Part shown: piece after piece, positions 1,684 through 59,483 of the stretch
How positions within the stretch are numbered: position 1 is the stretch's first letter
How the letters are laid out: every line of letters starts with the position of its first letter
Source of the DNA: Sinorhizobium americanum
GTDB taxonomy: Bacteria > Pseudomonadota > Alphaproteobacteria > Rhizobiales > Rhizobiaceae
Assembly: GCF_001651855.1 (NCBI RefSeq)
Contig: NZ_LNQC01000042.1
Location: forward strand, 1 to 64,000
Direction: 5' to 3'
Length of the DNA: 64,000 bases
Made by a program: the position numbers and the translations under genes
Notes under the pieces: generated by a model
What the model was told of the DNA's origin: nothing
Seen by the model: only the letters and a program-made list of their open reading frames with translations
The model's database searches: none

Positions 1684-4600
1684 CTACTCGGCCGCCAGCG
1701 CTATGCGCGCTTTCGGCTCCTCCGTCGGCTGCTGATGGATCTCATCTGCCGTCGGCTTGATCCGGAACCACGCGGCGTAGAGCGCCGGAAGGAAGAGCAG
1801 GATCAGCACCGTGCCGACCGCCGTGCCGCCAATCAGGGTATAGGCCATGGACCCCCAGAAGACCGAGTGCGTGAGGGGAATGAAGGCCAGCACGGCGGCA
1901 AGTGCGGTCAGGATAACCGGGCGTGTCCGCTGCACCGTCGCCTCGATGACCGCATGATAATCGTCGAGGCCGGCAGCACGGTTCTCCTTGATCTGTTCGG
2001 TCAGGATCAGCGTGTTGCGCATCAGGATGCCGGCCAGCCCTATCAGTCCGAGAATGGCATTGAAGCCGAAGGGCTGATTGAAGAAAAGCAACGCCGGAAC
2101 CACCCCGGCAAGACCGAGCGGCGCCGTCAACATGACCATGGTCATCGTTGACAGGCTGCGGACCTGGAGGATGATGACGATCAGCATGGCGGCAATCATG
2201 GCCGGGAAGATTTTGACCAGCGCGACATTGGCCTTGAGAGATTCCTCGATGTTTCCACCCATCTCGATGCGATATCCGACCGGGAGCGAGGCGATCAGCG
2301 GCTGCAGTGCCTTCATGATCTGCTGGGAAACCTCCGGGGGCTGCGTCGCCTCGTTAATGTCCGATCGGATCGTGACGACCGGCGTTCGATCGCGACGCTT
2401 CAGGATCGGTTCCTCAAACCGGATTTCGGAATGGCCGATCTGATCGAGCGGAACCTGACGGCCGTCCCTGCTCATCAGCGAAAAGTCGGCGAGCCTCGCC
2501 GGATCGAGGCGGCTCTCGCCAGCACTGCGTGCGACAACGGGGACGTTTCGGATGTTTTCGCGAACCTGCGTCACCGGAATGCCGCTCAGCAGCAACTGTA
2601 TCTGCTGGGCTGCCTCAGCCGGCGAAAGGCCAATCAGATTGAGCCGGTCCTGGTCGGGGACAAAGCGAAGCACAGGCGTACGATTGCCCCAATCGCGGTT
2701 TGCCTGACGCACGTCCGGTACGCCTTTCATGATGTCGAGGGCCTTCTCAGAGATCTGGTACAATTGCTTGGGATCCGGCCCCATAATGCGAAACTCGACC
2801 GGAAACGGGGTATACGGACCGAACACCAGCTGCGTGACACGGACGTAGGCTTCGGGAACTAGTCCGTCCGAAACGGCAGCCCTAAGGCGCTGCTTCAAAG
2901 CCTCGCGTGCGTGAGAATCGGGGGTGAGCACAACGATCTTGGCGAAAGCGGGGTCCGGCAATTCCGGCGCCATCGCAAAGAAGAAGCGGGGCGCGCCCTG
3001 CCCGACATAGCTGGTGACGATCTTTGCCTCGGGCTGGTTTTGCAGCCAGCTTTCAACCTTCTCGACCGCGGCTGTCGTCGTCTCGATACTAGTACCTTCG
3101 GGCATCCGGACTTCGACCAGCACTTCGGGACGATCCGACGTCGGGAAGAACTGCTGTTTCACCCCTCCCATTCCAACAACCGAAATGGCCATAGCGATGC
3201 CGACGACCGCGCATGTGATGAACTTGTGGCGCACGGCGAACTTGATGAGACCCCGCAGGCGCCGGTAATTCGGTGTGTCGTAGATGGCGTGATGGCCGCC
3301 CTCGACTGGCTTGATCGCCGGCAGCATCTTGACGCCGAGGTAGGGCGTGAAGATGACTGCGACGACCCAGGAAACGATTAGCGCAAAACCCACGACCCAG
3401 AAGATATTGCCGGCGTACTCGCCGGCGGTTGATCTGGCAAAGCCAACCGGCATCAGTCCGATGATTGTCACGAGTGTACCGGACAGCATGGGCGCTGCCG
3501 TATGGCTCCAGGCATAAGCGGCCGCCTTGATGCGATCCATGCCCTCTTCCATCTTTACCACCATCACCTCAATGGCGATGATGGCGTCGTCAACGAGAAG
3601 GCCCAGCGCCAGGATCAACGCGCCGAGTGTGATGCGATCGAAGAACCGGCCGGTTTCCAACATGATGAGGAACACGACGGCAAGCGTGAGCGGAACGGCG
3701 AGCGCTACGACGATCCCGACACGCCAACCGAGGCTGAGCAGGCTCACGAGCAACACAACTCCGAGCGCCATGGCGAATTTCACCATGAACTCGCCGACCG
3801 CAGCGTCGATGTTGACGGCCTGATCGCTGACCTTGGCGAGCGTCATACCGAGCGGCAGTGTCTGTGCGATCGCGGCAGATCGTTCTTCGAGCGCCTTTCC
3901 GAGCTCGAGCCCGTTCCAGCCCTGCTGCATCACCGCAGCAAGCATGATGGCCGGCTCGCCTTCATGGCGGATGATGTAGGTCGGGGGGTCTTGATAGCCG
4001 CGCCGCACCTCCGCGAAATCAGAGAGTTTCAACGTGCGTCCGGCAGCGACGATCGGCGTGTCGGCAATTGCCTGCACACTGTTGTAGGCGCCATCGAAAC
4101 GGATAAAAACCTGCGGCCCGCGCGTATCGATCGAGCCTGCCGGAGTGACGGTGTTTTGCCTTTGCAAAGCGGCGGCGATGTCCTGTGCTGAAATGCCAAG
4201 GGTGGCGAGCTTGGCATACGAGAACTCGACAAAGATCTGTTCCGGCCGCTCCCCCAGAATGTTCATCTTTTTAACACCCGGCACGTGCAGAAGATCCTGA
4301 CGGATCGCCTCTGCCTGCCGCACAAGCTCGCGCATGGGCATACCCTTGGCCTTTAGCGCATAAAGGGCGAAGCTCACGTCCGAATATTCGTCGTTGACGA
4401 AGGGACCGAAGACGCCAGCAGGCAGGTTGCGTGCTTCGTCCCCCAACTTCTTGCGCGCCTGATAGAACTCCTCTTCGACAGCCGTGGCCGGCGTGCTGTC
4501 CTTCAGGGTGACGGTCAGAAAGGCGTAGCCGGGTCGGGTCATTGTCTCGACACGGTCATACCAGGTCAGTTCCTGGATGCGCTTTTCGAGCGGCTCCGCG

Positions 4601-55832: not shown

Positions 55833-57164
55833 ATGAACATGACACATAGCCTGAGGAAGTACATGCTGGCGGCCGCCTCGGCGCTCGCGCTCGCCGTCGC
55901 GACGCCTGCCCTGGCGGCAACCGAACTTACCGTGCAGCGCTTCTTCGGCGCCTGCGACGCGGAGTTCGGCACCAATACCGACGTCAGCAAGGCCGTCGGG
56001 GAATGCGGCATCATCACCTCGCTGATCAACAAGTTCAACGCCGACAACCCGGATGTGCATGTGATCGTGACCACCGTCGAATGGCCGGGCTACGACCAGC
56101 TGACGGCGCAGTTTGCGGCCGGCGACCCGCCGGACATCGTCACCGTCCACCACTCCGTGCTCGGCGACTACCAGTCCAAGGGCCTGTTGATGCCGCTTGA
56201 CGATCTCCTGAAAACGGTTGGCGTCTCGCCCTCGGACTTCACCGACGCGAGCCTCAGCGGCGTCACCAAGGACGGCAAGATCCATGGCTTGCCGATCGAC
56301 AACTGGACTATGCTGTTCCACGTCAACCTGGACCTCTTCAAAAAGGCCGGCCTCGTCAATGCCGACGGCACGCCGAAGCTGCCGGCGAGCGTCGACGAAC
56401 TCATGGCACAGGCCAAGCAGTTCAAGGAAAAGACGGGCAAGCCCTATTTCGTCCAAAATCTCGCGAATGAAGTCGCGCTCTATACGCGCAACCTCTACAC
56501 CTATCTTTTCCAGCAGGATTCCGATTTCTTTGCCGATCCCAAGCAGGTGAAGATGAACACGGCCGAGGCCAAGAAGGTCCTCGAGATGTACAAGGCGATC
56601 TACGACAACGACGACACCACGAAAGACCTGGACTACGCCGCCAGCATCAATGCCTTTCTCGCAGGCGAAGGCGGCGTGCATTTGAATGGTACGTGGGTGA
56701 TCGGCGACTACACCGCCTCCTCGGAAACATCCGGTACCGCCCTCAACGCCGGCGGCTACGCGGTCTACCCTTATCCGCAGCTTTTCTCCGGCAAAAAGGC
56801 CCAATATGCCGACGGCCACAGCTGGGCCGTTTCGCAGAAAGACCGCACCCCGGAGGAAGAGGCGGCGATCGGCAAGTTCCTGAAGTTCTTCAACGACAAT
56901 GACTACGAATGGTCACGTACCGGCCACCTTCCGGCGGTGAAGGCCGTGCTCGAGTCGGACGCGTTCAAGAAGCTGCCGCATCGCGATACGATCGCGCCCA
57001 TCGCAACACTCGGCACGCCGCTGCCGTCGACCGTGCAGCGCCAGTTCGCAATCCAGGACATCATCGGCCAGGAGATGAATGCGGCGATTACCGGCCAGAA
57101 GGAGATCGACGCCGCCCTTGCCGACATGGAGTCCCGCATCAACGAGTTGCTCGCGAATATCTGA
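55833..57164 (+). CDS. Sugar ABC importer binding protein
   Basis: This 443-residue family 1 solute-binding protein has a Sec signal (MLAAASALALAVATPALA, cleavage after ALA). The mature part carries the LITANGD-like SBP motif GDPPDIVTVHHSVLGDYQSKGLL and the hinge-associated LNGTWVIGDYT. Substrate is probably an arabinoside, judged from the GH51 neighbour. It closes the importer operon. Confidence 0.93.
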   Translation: MNMTHSLRKYMLAAASALALAVATPALAATELTVQRFFGACDAEFGTNTDVSKAVGECGIITSLINKFNADNPDVHVIVTTVEWPGYDQLTAQFAAGDPPDIVTVHHSVLGDYQSKGLLMPLDDLLKTVGVSPSDFTDASLSGVTKDGKIHGLPIDNWTMLFHVNLDLFKKAGLVNADGTPKLPASVDELMAQAKQFKEKTGKPYFVQNLANEVALYTRNLYTYLFQQDSDFFADPKQVKMNTAEAKKVLEMYKAIYDNDDTTKDLDYAASINAFLAGEGGVHLNGTWVIGDYTASSETSGTALNAGGYAVYPYPQLFSGKKAQYADGHSWAVSQKDRTPEEEAAIGKFLKFFNDNDYEWSRTGHLPAVKAVLESDAFKKLPHRDTIAPIATLGTPLPSTVQRQFAIQDIIGQEMNAAITGQKEIDAALADMESRINELLANI

Positions 57165-57307: not shown

Positions 57308-57384
57308 AAACCCGGCGAGGTCTGAACTGCCCCCCGAAGTTGGATGTCCAACTTTGTGGGGTCAGTTCAGTCATCGCCGGGTTT
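57308..57384. terminator. Bidirectional terminator whose loop is interrupted by a 47-bp element
   Basis: Arms AAACCCGGCGA (57308-57318) and TCGCCGGGTTT (57374-57384) would form a perfect 11-bp stem with a GGTCA loop if the 47-bp element at 57323-57369 and one copy of GTC are removed. TTTTCTT follows on the plus strand and TTTCTCTTTT on the minus strand, so it serves both the importer and aspS. Confidence 0.8.
57323..57369. mobile_element. 47-bp mini-element made of two IS3-family-like ends
   Basis: Inverted ends TGAACTGCCCCCCGAAGTTGG... (left) and TGAACTGACCCCACAAAGTTGG... (right, reverse strand) face outward with only TG between them. GTC repeats directly on both sides (57320-57322 and 57370-57372), a 3-bp target duplication. 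The ends resemble those of the IS150 group of the IS3 family. There is no transposase inside. Confidence 0.75.
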
Positions 57385-57403: not shown

Positions 57404-59191
57404 TCAGTCCTTTTTCTGCGGGATCGGCCGGATCGCCAGTTCGCGCAGTTGCGCCGGCGTTGCCGGCGACGGTGCTCCCATCAACAGATCGACGGCCTGC
57501 TGGTTCATCGGGAACAGCGAGATCTCACGCAGGTTCTTGGCGCCGACGATCAGCATGACGATGCGATCGATGCCGAAGGCCATGCCGCCATGCGGCGGGG
57601 CGCCGTACTGGAAGGCGCGGTAGAGACCGCCGAACTGCGCTTCGACATCCGCCTGGCTGAGGCCGACATTCTCGAAGGCCTTGACCATCAGCTCCGGCGA
57701 CTGGTTACGGATCGAGCCGGATGCGATTTCGAAGCCGTTGCAGACCATGTCGTACTGGAACGCCTTGATCGACAGCAGGTCGTCGCCCGAGAGCGCCTCA
57801 AGGCCGCCCTGCGGCATCGAGAACGGGTTATGGGCGAAGTCGACGCGCTTCTCGTCCTCATTCCATTCATAGAACGGGAAGTCGACGATCCAGCACAGTT
57901 CGAAGCGGTCGCGATCGACGAGGTTCAGCTCCTCGCCGGCCTTGGTGCGGGCTTCGCCCGCGAATTTGTAGAACTTGGCCGGCTCGCCGGCGACGAAGAA
58001 GCAGGCGTCGCCATCCTCGAGGCCGAGCTGCGTGCGGATCGCATCGGTGCGTTCCTCGCCGATGTTCTTGGCGAGCGGGCCTGCCCCTTCGAGCTTCTCG
58101 CCTTCCTTGCGCCAGAAGATATAGCCGAGGCCTGGCTGACCCTGGCTCTGGGCCCAGGCGTTCATGCGGTCGCAAAAGGCGCGGCTGCCGCCGGTCTTGG
58201 CCGGGATCGCCCAGATCTCCACCTTCGGGTTGGAGGCGATCATGTTGGCGAAGACCTTGAAGCCGGAGCCGGCGAAATGCTGGGTGACGTCCTGCATCTC
58301 GATCGGGTTGCGGAGATCGGGCTTGTCGGAACCGTATTTGCGGATCGCCGTGTCATAGGGGATGCGCTGGAACTTTTCGGTGACCGGCTTGCCGCCGGCG
58401 AAGTCCGCGAAAATCGCGCGGATCATCGGCTCCATTGTGTCCCAGACGTCTTCCTGTTCGACGAAGCTCATCTCCAGGTCGAGCTGGTAGAATTCGCCCG
58501 GCAGCCGGTCGGCACGCGGGTCCTCGTCGCGGAAGCAGGGCGCGATCTGGAAATAGCGGTCGAAGCCGGCGACCATCAGCAGCTGCTTGTACTGCTGCGG
58601 CGCCTGCGGCAGCGCGTAGAAGGTGCCGGGGTGAATGCGGCTCGGCACCAGGAAGTCGCGCGCGCCTTCCGGCGACGAGGCCGTCAGGATCGGCGTCGTA
58701 TATTCGGTGAAACCGATCTCGGTCATGCCCCGGCGCATGGCCGAGATGATCTCGGTGCGCTTAACGATGTTCTTGTGCAGCGTCTCGCGGCGGAGATCGA
58801 GGAAGCGGTATTTGAGGCGCACGTCTTCTGGATATTCCGGCTCGCCGAAGACCGGCAGCGGCAGTTCCTTGGCGGCCGAAAGGACTTCGATCTCGCGGGC
58901 ATAGAGCTCGACCTCGCCGGTCGGCATGTTCTTGTTGACGGTCTCGTCGGTGCGAGCCTTGACGGTTCCGTCGATGCGGATGACCCATTCACCGCGCACG
59001 GTTTCCGCCATCTTGAAGGCCGGCGAGTCCGGATCGGCGACGACCTGGGTGATGCCGTAATGGTCGCGCAGGTCGATGAAGAGCACGCCGCCGTGGTCGC
59101 GGACGCGGTGAACCCAGCCGGAAAGGCGAACGGTGGAGCCGACATCCGACTTGCGGAGAGCGGCACAGGTGTGGCTGCGGTAACGGTGCAT
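57404..59191 (-). CDS. aspS: Aspartyl-tRNA synthetase
   Basis: This 595-residue class II synthetase has an N-terminal OB anticodon domain ([18 protein letters not shown]), motif 2 ([24 protein letters not shown]) and motif 3 ([13 protein letters not shown]), plus the bacterial GAD insertion near 300-410. Probably non-discriminating, as in alphaproteobacteria with GatCAB. The start MHRYRSH is the family start; the frame runs back to 59338. Confidence 0.96.
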
Positions 59192-59483
59192 CGTCTGGTC
59201 CTGGAATTGCAGAAGGCCGCGCGAGGCTCGCCAAGGCGGGCGCGGCGGCATAGCCAAAGTCGGGCGGAAAAGCGCATGATGCGCCGGATTTGTCAAGGCC
59301 GCGGCGCTCCCGCCGCCCGTCCAATGGGCGCCTGCCAACGCAACGTTGTCCGACTAGGTGCGTCTCGGCGGACATGACACCAGAAAAGGTCACAAATCGC
59401 GACTGTCTTCCCCTATCGCGTATCGGGTACACAGTGGAAGACCCACCCGCCCCACGAGTCGCCGCCGTAAAGCCGGGTGCGCC

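What the first reader, a model, noticed from the sequence alone, without database searches (positions are those of the whole stretch)
57308..57384. 47-bp palindromic mini-element inserted exactly in the loop of a terminator
Seen: two near-identical 22-23 bp ends face outward with 2 bp between them, flanked by a GTC direct repeat, inside a hairpin. Removing the element plus one GTC restores a perfect 11-bp stem/5-nt-loop terminator shared by the importer operon and aspS. Known: IS3-family (IS150 group) ends look like this and make 3-bp duplications. Inferred: a transposase-free derivative chose, or was tolerated in, the terminator loop, and the terminator may now fold as a long double hairpin.
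Basis: partly seen in the sequence, partly recalled or inferred. Interest (0 to 1): 0.7.

Follow-up and report, generated by a model that had tools for sequence, protein, structure and literature searches.

The report
IS relics nested in terminator loops
A 47-base DNA palindrome sits exactly in the loop of a predicted transcription terminator; it is likely the shrunken remnant of a jumping gene (an insertion sequence) of a kind found in such loops in many bacteria, where insertion would do little harm and loss of the middle would leave only a longer hairpin.

Summary
The 47-bp element (57323-57369) lies between two GTC copies in the loop of a terminator-like hairpin between aspS and a solute-binding-protein gene. 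It is absent downstream of aspS in 29 of 29 sister loci examined; two hold exactly the predicted empty site with one GTC. At 65 of 111 distinct sites a strong stem spans the insertion point (2.5% of random points), and 56 of 111 have a 3- or 4-bp direct repeat. Full-length IS3-family, IS150-like parents with the same ends exist; 12 of 14 sit in such stems. Their transposase-side end is a hairpin, usually followed by a T run. Joined at GGGG(G)T to the last bases of the other end, it predicts the mini-elements, eight of them letter for letter. One R. leguminosarum-complex terminator shows empty, partly deleted and 45-47 bp states. I read the element as an in-place collapse remnant ("nearly precise excision") rather than a free mini-transposon. 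Deletion mechanism and effect on termination are untested.

The parts
57308..57318 (.). Left arm of the terminator-like stem, AAACCCGGCGA (between convergent genes)
   Evidence: Sequence; repeats; fold of the empty site; same hairpin without element in sister genomes
57320..57322 (.). GTC, left copy of the 3-bp target duplication
   Evidence: Sequence; only one GTC in the empty sites L038 and L049
57323..57369 (-). 47-bp palindromic IS remnant; read on the - strand it fits best as the IS left-end (transposase-side) hairpin plus about 8 bases of the IS right tip (orientation tentative)
   Evidence: relatives; fit to the predicted fusion 39 against 37 for a plain end-to-end join, a small margin for this copy
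57323..57344 (+). Outward-facing end 1, TGAACTGCCCCCCGAAGTTGGA
   Evidence: 1 match; 0 in 100 shuffles
57347..57369 (-). Outward-facing end 2, TGAACTGACCCCACAAAGTTGGA on the - strand
   Evidence: Sequence; similar to full-IS ends
57370..57372 (.). GTC, right copy of the 3-bp target duplication
57374..57384 (.). Right arm of the terminator-like stem, TCGCCGGGTTT, followed by TCTTG
55833..57164 (+). Flanking gene: extracellular solute-binding protein (PF01547), converging on the element
57404..59338 (-). Flanking gene: class II aminoacyl-tRNA synthetase with OB fold and GAD domain, aspS-like (start codon not settled)

Best explanation
The 47-bp palindrome at 57323-57369 lies in the loop of a predicted transcription terminator and is most likely the collapsed remnant of an IS3-family (IS150-like) insertion sequence that landed in that loop and then lost its interior through a deletion between short direct repeats near its two ends. 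Shown: it has IS3-type ends, a 3-bp repeat on both sides, an empty counterpart in two sister genomes, and many relatives at the same kind of site; full-length parents with the same ends sit in the same kind of site. Shown: the transposase-side end of the parents is a hairpin of about 40 bp (about 43 bp in the Burkholderiales and Halomonas copies), in 13 of 14 full copies followed by a T run and then the transposase start, and most mini-elements match that hairpin plus the last bases of the right end. Inferred: the deletion joins GGGG(G)T inside the left-end hairpin to GGGGT in the right tip, helped by the inverted repeats (terminator arms plus IS ends) around the element, as in the nearly precise excision known for Tn10-type transposons. 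Inferred: insertion in the loop is nearly harmless because the element's own left end would act as a substitute terminator, and the collapse leaves host stem and T tract in place with a longer hairpin, so that termination would persist.
For: Site rule: 18 places in 15 of 394 Rhizobiaceae genomes from a pattern that ignores the flanks, 17 of 18 folding as an element inside a hairpin with terminator-like flanks, judged by eye (L027 the weakest, L018 a likely chance match). 119 stretches in a species-wide scan; at 111 distinct sites stem score >=20 in 65 against 2.5% of 11,100 random points, >=24 in 55 against 0.85%, A and T tracts on both sides in 46 against 0.8%, exact flanking repeat of 3 bp in 40 (shuffled mean 2.8) and of 4 bp in 16 (0.6), 56 in all. 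Stricter control with flanks of different elements paired: 11% at >=20 against 68 of 118. Parent: full IS in G002, IS3-family transposase; of 14 full-length copies, 12 have stem >=20 and 11 a repeat of at least 3 bp. Fusion: 108 of 120 elements fit the predicted fusion better than an end-to-end join, 10 the reverse, 2 ties; 8 elements (7 site clusters) are identical to the product predicted from a sequenced IS. Decay in place: at one terminator on R. leguminosarum-complex plasmids, of 12 records read, 3 empty (L251, L253, L259), 2 with an internally deleted IS keeping both tips (L255, 643 bp; L256, 583 bp), 2 with a mini-element (L241, 47 bp; L260, 45 bp), 5 with one IS end (L246, L252, L257, L258, L261). 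G105 has 4 full copies and no mini-element of that kind. Window: empty site in L038 and L049; 0 of 29 sister loci with a mini-element.
Against: For the window copy the fusion model wins only 39 to 37. Its own genome has no intact parent: the nearest is a decayed left part at G000:C48:10524, and the best OrfB match is weak (1.8e-13), so the collapse is not seen in this lineage. 10 of 120 elements fit an end-to-end join better. The R. leguminosarum series may mix independent insertions at a hot spot: the IS end points the other way in L246, L252, L258 and L261, and only 12 of 121 matching records were read. 46 of 111 sites lack a stem of score >=20 and 55 of 111 lack an exact 3-4 bp repeat. Some elements sit in REP-like palindromes (Advenella) or in no clear stem (L009, L069; full copies L204, L264). 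No site was found with a complete IS in one strain and the mini-element in another.
Confidence: 0.72

Rival explanations
1. A true mini-transposon (MITE): the 47-mer is itself mobilised in trans by an IS150-like transposase that prefers hairpin loops.
For: Two end-like arms with TG..CA tips and 3-4 bp repeats at 56 of 111 sites; mini-elements in 14 of 394 Rhizobiaceae genomes (L018 set aside) against 3 of 394 with a close OrfB at E <= 1e-90; two Advenella mandrilli elements, L116 and L136, are identical and two in G021, L011 and L013, nearly so.
Against: In most elements the right arm is the inner arm of the left-end hairpin, not the right end; the four elements in G061 all differ; G105 with 4 full copies has no mini-element of that kind within 3 mismatches. 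IS3-family elements move through a minicircle (PMC3219604, start of abstract seen in the listing), and a 47-bp duplex circle is physically implausible (recalled). Two copies only were found in the window's genome.
Confidence: 0.2
2. Fold-back copying: during replication the nascent left-end hairpin primes on itself, copies tip and terminator arm, and skips the rest of the IS, giving a perfect palindrome.
For: 10 of 111 sites have perfectly complementary flanks for at least 4 bases right next to the element (e.g. L098, L123, L156, L157, L162), which simple deletion of an IS with a target duplication would not give.
Against: 56 of 111 sites keep a direct repeat, and many elements have unequal tips: the window copy has TGAACTGCCCC on one side and TGAACTGACCCC on the other, and many 51-52 bp elements end in GGGGTGCAGTTCA opposite TGAACTGACCCC, so the right tip came from the right end there.
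Confidence: 0.1
3. The element is a selected terminator extension: the long hairpin was kept because it improves termination or protects the mRNA 3' ends of the two convergent genes.
For: Predicted folding is far more stable with the element (-60.0 against -23.2 kcal/mol on the + strand); related elements persist at the same site in several records (L091/L146/L148/L155, L104/L195, L140/L202).
Against: Absent from 29 of 29 sister loci examined. Termination is expected to depend mainly on the stem base and T tract, which the empty site already has (recalled, not tested).
Confidence: 0.1

Closest known systems
IS1397 / ISKpn1 / ISPsy8 (IS3 family, targeting REP sequences or palindromic units)
   Same: IS3-family elements that insert into palindromic sequences; experiments with IS1397 and ISKpn1 point to the transposase as source of the specificity (passages of PMC1525189)
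   Different: Here many targets are terminator-like hairpins with differing sequences and flanking A/T tracts rather than one REP family, and 44-54 bp collapsed remnants are common; REP-like targets are seen in some genera
Nearly precise excision of Tn10-type transposons
   Same: Deletion between short direct repeats near the ends, helped by inverted repeats (passages of PMC12524634); that a remnant of about 50 bp stays at the old site is recalled
   Different: Different transposon family; here inferred from natural genomes of many genera, with junctions at about 5 bp of identity inside longer imperfect repeats
Bacterial class C (group IIC) introns
   Same: Mobile elements that use intrinsic terminators as landing sites (passages of PMC3522654)
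   Different: Retroelements that insert downstream of the terminator, not in its loop; no DDE transposase
Prokaryotic MITEs (review PMC10969869, passages)
   Same: Short, without gene, inverted ends, target duplications, stable hairpins
   Different: At 44-54 bp much shorter than the examples in the passages seen, low copy number here, and better explained by collapse in place than by transposition

Membership tests
IS3 family, IS150-like (the parent element) | IS3-family transposase with integrase core | tested here: met
   L079 OrfB: NF033516 327 bits (cut-off 160), rve, rve_2, HTH_21; OrfA with two HTH_28 stretches. That this makes it IS150-group is from recall
IS3 family, IS150-like (the parent element) | Inverted ends TG...CA and a 3-4 bp target duplication | tested here: met
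   14 of 14 full copies TG...CA (they were picked by end patterns); 11 of 14 with a direct repeat of at least 3 bp, which the patterns did not ask for
IS3 family, IS150-like (the parent element) | Two frames joined by programmed frameshifting | not tested
   OrfA frame (2000-2653) and OrfB frame (2677-3477) seen in L079; no frameshift site examined
Insertion sequence (the 47-bp element itself) | Encodes its own transposase | tested here: not met
   47 bp, no gene; filed as a remnant, not as an IS
MITE | Short, gene-free, inverted ends, target duplication | tested here: met
MITE | Moves or amplifies through a transposase supplied in trans | tested here: inconclusive
   2 copies in the window's genome; 0 in G105 beside 4 full copies; one identical pair in Advenella mandrilli
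REP-targeting IS3 elements (IS1397-like) | Inserts in a palindrome, between its arms | tested here: met
   Stem >=20 across the insertion point at 65 of 111 sites and 12 of 14 full copies, against 2.5% of random points
REP-targeting IS3 elements (IS1397-like) | Target is one family of repeated REP sequences | tested here: not met
   116 elements fall into 111 clusters by flank sequence; REP-like flanks only in some genera (by eye)
Nearly precise excision remnant | Junction at short direct repeats near both ends | tested here: met
   Fusion at GGGG(G)T reproduces 8 of 120 elements exactly and is the better of two models for 108 of 120; small margin for the window copy
Nearly precise excision remnant | Independent of RecA and transposase, linked to replication | not testable with these tools
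   Needs an excision assay

The most novel reading that the evidence does not exclude
A widespread lineage of IS150-like elements lives in a terminator niche: the transposase recognises terminator hairpins, inserts in their loops, brings a replacement terminator at its own left end so that the host notices nothing, and on collapse leaves a stretched terminator. Terminator loops across Proteobacteria would then be a shared safe harbour, and the 44-54 bp palindromes in them a fossil record of past invasions.
Probability: 0.45. Interest if true: 0.75.

Novelty: new variant of a known kind. Interest (0 to 1): 0.6.

Why it matters
It turns an oddity in one intergenic gap into a rule: an IS3-family lineage found in terminator loops, and a simple route from the full element to a 44-54 bp remnant. 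If the target rule is causal, it offers a testable case of a DDE transposase that reads a hairpin, would explain many extra-long terminators in Proteobacteria, and warns that such palindromes may be IS fossils rather than regulatory structures.

Tried and rejected
The plain MITE reading was kept as a rival, not adopted. Chance was rejected. A full IS at the window's site in relatives was sought: in G008 and G010 the gap between the two genes is longer (about 770-840 bp) and holds rhodanese-like ORF sequence (recalled resemblance), not an IS. At the terminator of the S. fredii mini-element L242 other strains carry different insertions or DNA, so that site says nothing on decay. E. coli: 2 of 5,426 genomes match 25 bp of an end and none the whole mini-element, for one 47-bp query. 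The S. meliloti pSymB full copy is shared by 12 records; the 60 rows listed of 71 show no record joining both flanks around a short insert. The consensus terminator scanner found no site at the window element or two IS left ends; it allows loops of 3-8 nt only and no bulges, so it cannot see these structures, but it lends no support either. A loose regular expression on L062-L070 found nothing useful and was replaced by reading the BLAST coordinates. Ten paper searches listed no title or abstract start that reports IS3 mini-elements or IS150-like elements in terminator loops; several lists were cut (e.g. 15 of 3,852, 25 of 68), and most subscription papers, such as the IS1397 original, are not held.

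Rows dropped before counts: 120 elements lost 2 with short flanks and 2 duplicates (116 left), then merged to 111 sites. In one search one element per locus was used (L196 has two) plus the window copy; L264 gave no predicted product. L018 was set aside by eye. A few of the 119 stretches (such as L173 and L176) look like chance matches; they were kept in the counts. Full copies were taken only where both ends matched my patterns; IS ends without a partner (L205, L246, L267-L269 and others) were left out of the 14. Titles were shown for 80 of the 119 stretches.

Full report
WHAT IS IN THE WINDOW. Between a solute-binding-protein gene (55833-57164, +) and an aspS-like gene (57404-59338, -) lies the hairpin 57308-57384. 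Its outer stem is AAACCCGGCGA/TCGCCGGGTTT; inside it stand GTC, 47 bp, GTC. The 47 bp are two outward-facing ends of 22 and 23 bp with TG between them. The whole folds at -60.0 kcal/mol on the + strand against -23.2 for the flanks alone, and far better than shuffles.

THE EMPTY SITE. A 701-bp query around the element matched 33 of 33 genus genomes, the window's own included. I then read 400 bp downstream of aspS in 29 loci, one from each of 29 of the 32 other genomes: no mini-element in 29 of 29, a CCCGGC-type hairpin of at least 7 bp in 22, another hairpin in 1, none in 6. G018 and G003 hold CCCGGCGAGGTCATCGCCGGG, exactly the window's flanks with one GTC. G001 and G024 hold the same stem with another 5-nt loop. 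So the element was gained in the window's lineage. The genus is Sinorhizobium/Ensifer: the length of G021's contig C1 equals that of Ensifer sp. BR816 NZ_KB905370.1, and that of G019's C186 equals a Sinorhizobium shofinae contig.

A FAMILY WITH A SITE RULE. The window's genome has a second 47-bp relative (C70:2492-2538, 85% identity) and a decayed IS left part (C48:10524). In 394 Rhizobiaceae genomes a pattern that describes only the element, not its flanks, gave 18 places in 15 genomes; 17 of 18 fold as an element within a hairpin with terminator-like flanks (by eye; L027 is the weakest, L018 a likely chance match). Of the 80 titles shown, 78 are Proteobacteria by name (Rhizobium, Mesorhizobium, Sinorhizobium, Burkholderiales, Pseudomonas, Shewanella, Psychrobacter and others) and 2 are not (L118, L137). 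Lengths cluster at 44-47 and 51-52 bp. At 111 distinct sites a stem of score >=20 spans the insertion point in 65, against 2.5% of 11,100 random points in the same loci; A and T tracts flank both sides in 46, against 0.8%; exact direct repeats of 3 bp stand at 40 (shuffled mean 2.8) and of 4 bp at 16 (0.6), 56 sites in all. A stricter control that pairs left and right flanks of different elements gives 11% at >=20, against 68 of 118 observed. Against the rule: 46 of 111 sites lack such a stem, and some genera (Advenella) use REP-like palindromes.

THE PARENT. G002 holds a 1437-bp element with the same ends and a TTG repeat on both sides, in a loop of the form AAAAAAGCCCGGTTTG|IS|TTGCTCCGGGCTTTTTT. 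Its OrfB is an IS3-family transposase. In all I collected 14 full-length copies (Sinorhizobium, Rhizobium, other Rhizobiaceae, Cupriavidus, Paraburkholderia), 1368-1452 bp; 12 have stem >=20 and 11 a repeat of at least 3 bp; L204 and L264 lack a strong stem. The left end is a hairpin; in 13 of 14 it is followed by a T run and the transposase start, e.g. TGAACTGACCCCCGAAAGTTGGACATCCACTTTCGGGGG-TTTTTAC-ATG; in Cupriavidus, Caballeronia and Halomonas the hairpin is about 43 bp and followed by TG-TTTTT-C-ATG. It folds strongly (-29.1 and -35.4 kcal/mol with 20 bases of flank). I infer that it shields the transposase gene from outside transcription and substitutes for the split host terminator; no test was made, and the consensus terminator scan did not flag it.

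HOW THE MINI-ELEMENTS ARISE. Taking each full IS, cutting after GGGG(G) in the left-end hairpin and adding the right tip TCAGTTCA predicts products of 46-51 bp (13 of 14 copies gave one). Of 120 elements (119 loci plus the window), 108 are closer to such a product than to a join of two whole ends, 10 are closer to the latter, 2 tie; eight (L087, L100, L104, L106, L132, L142, L194, L195; L104 and L195 are one site cluster) are identical to a predicted product. For the window copy the margin is small (39 against 37). The difference in length between the 44-47 and 51-52 bp elements follows the length of the parents' left-end hairpins.

DECAY IN PLACE AT ONE SITE. Beside nanR on plasmids of the R. 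leguminosarum complex one terminator is empty in three records (L251, L253, L259 = strain 3841), holds an IS with its middle deleted and both tips kept in two (L255, 643 bp; L256, 583 bp), a 47- or 45-bp element in two (L241, L260), and a single IS end in five (L246, L252, L257, L258, L261). L255 and L241 have the same orientation; L246, L252, L258 and L261 have the opposite one, so this loop was probably hit more than once. The series supports decay in place but is not one lineage. These 12 records were chosen from 121 that matched.

MOBILE OR RELIC. G105 carries four full copies and no mini-element of its kind within 3 mismatches. Among 394 family genomes 3 had a close OrfB (E <= 1e-90) and 14 a mini-element; the query was one subfamily, so divergent parents may be missed. 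Four elements in G061 all differ. Against this, L116 and L136 in Advenella mandrilli are identical. I hold the relic reading at 0.72.

PRIOR KNOWLEDGE. IS3-family elements that target REP palindromes are known (passages of PMC1525189), group IIC introns insert downstream of terminators (passages of PMC3522654), and nearly precise excision is known for Tn10-type transposons (passages of PMC12524634). Passages of a MITE review (PMC10969869) and of an IS survey (PMC9208149) mention nothing of this kind in what I saw. Ten searches of the open library listed no report of it. I call it a new variant of a known kind.

Noticed in passing
G000:C70:2492-2538 (L004, L076): Second 47-bp element in the window's own genome, 85% identical over the aligned part, with a short GCCGC/GCGGC flanking stem but no clear T tract.
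   Followed up: partly
G000:C48:10524 onward (L002, L077): Decayed copy of the parent IS: left end and start of OrfA, right end not found; it lies downstream of, not inside, a GGCCTCTTC/GAAGAGGCC hairpin.
   Followed up: partly
L116, L136, L138, L152 (Advenella mandrilli); L084, L097, L141 (Alcaligenaceae MAG): Here the elements sit in REP-like palindromes (about TTCCCAYGCTC/GAGCRTGGGAA, by eye) instead of terminators; L116 and L136 are identical.
   Followed up: no
L098, L123, L156, L157, L162: A subset has perfectly complementary flanks right up to the element and no direct repeat, as if the palindrome had been completed by fold-back copying.
   Followed up: partly
L118 (Fermentimonas MAG), L137 (Spirochaetaceae MAG); plasmid hit H251 (Priestia koreensis): Similar elements or partial matches outside Proteobacteria; wider spread or assembly contamination.
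   Followed up: no
L073 (G008) and L074 (G010), between aspS and the solute-binding-protein gene: Two relatives carry rhodanese-like ORF sequence in this gap (about 150 aa in L074); the resemblance is recalled, not tested.
   Followed up: partly
L242 against L247, L248, L249: At the terminator where S. fredii CCBAU 45436 has a mini-element, two strains carry about 1.35 kb with an IS110-like transposase (recalled resemblance) and a third about 220 bp of other DNA: several kinds of insertion meet there.
   Followed up: partly
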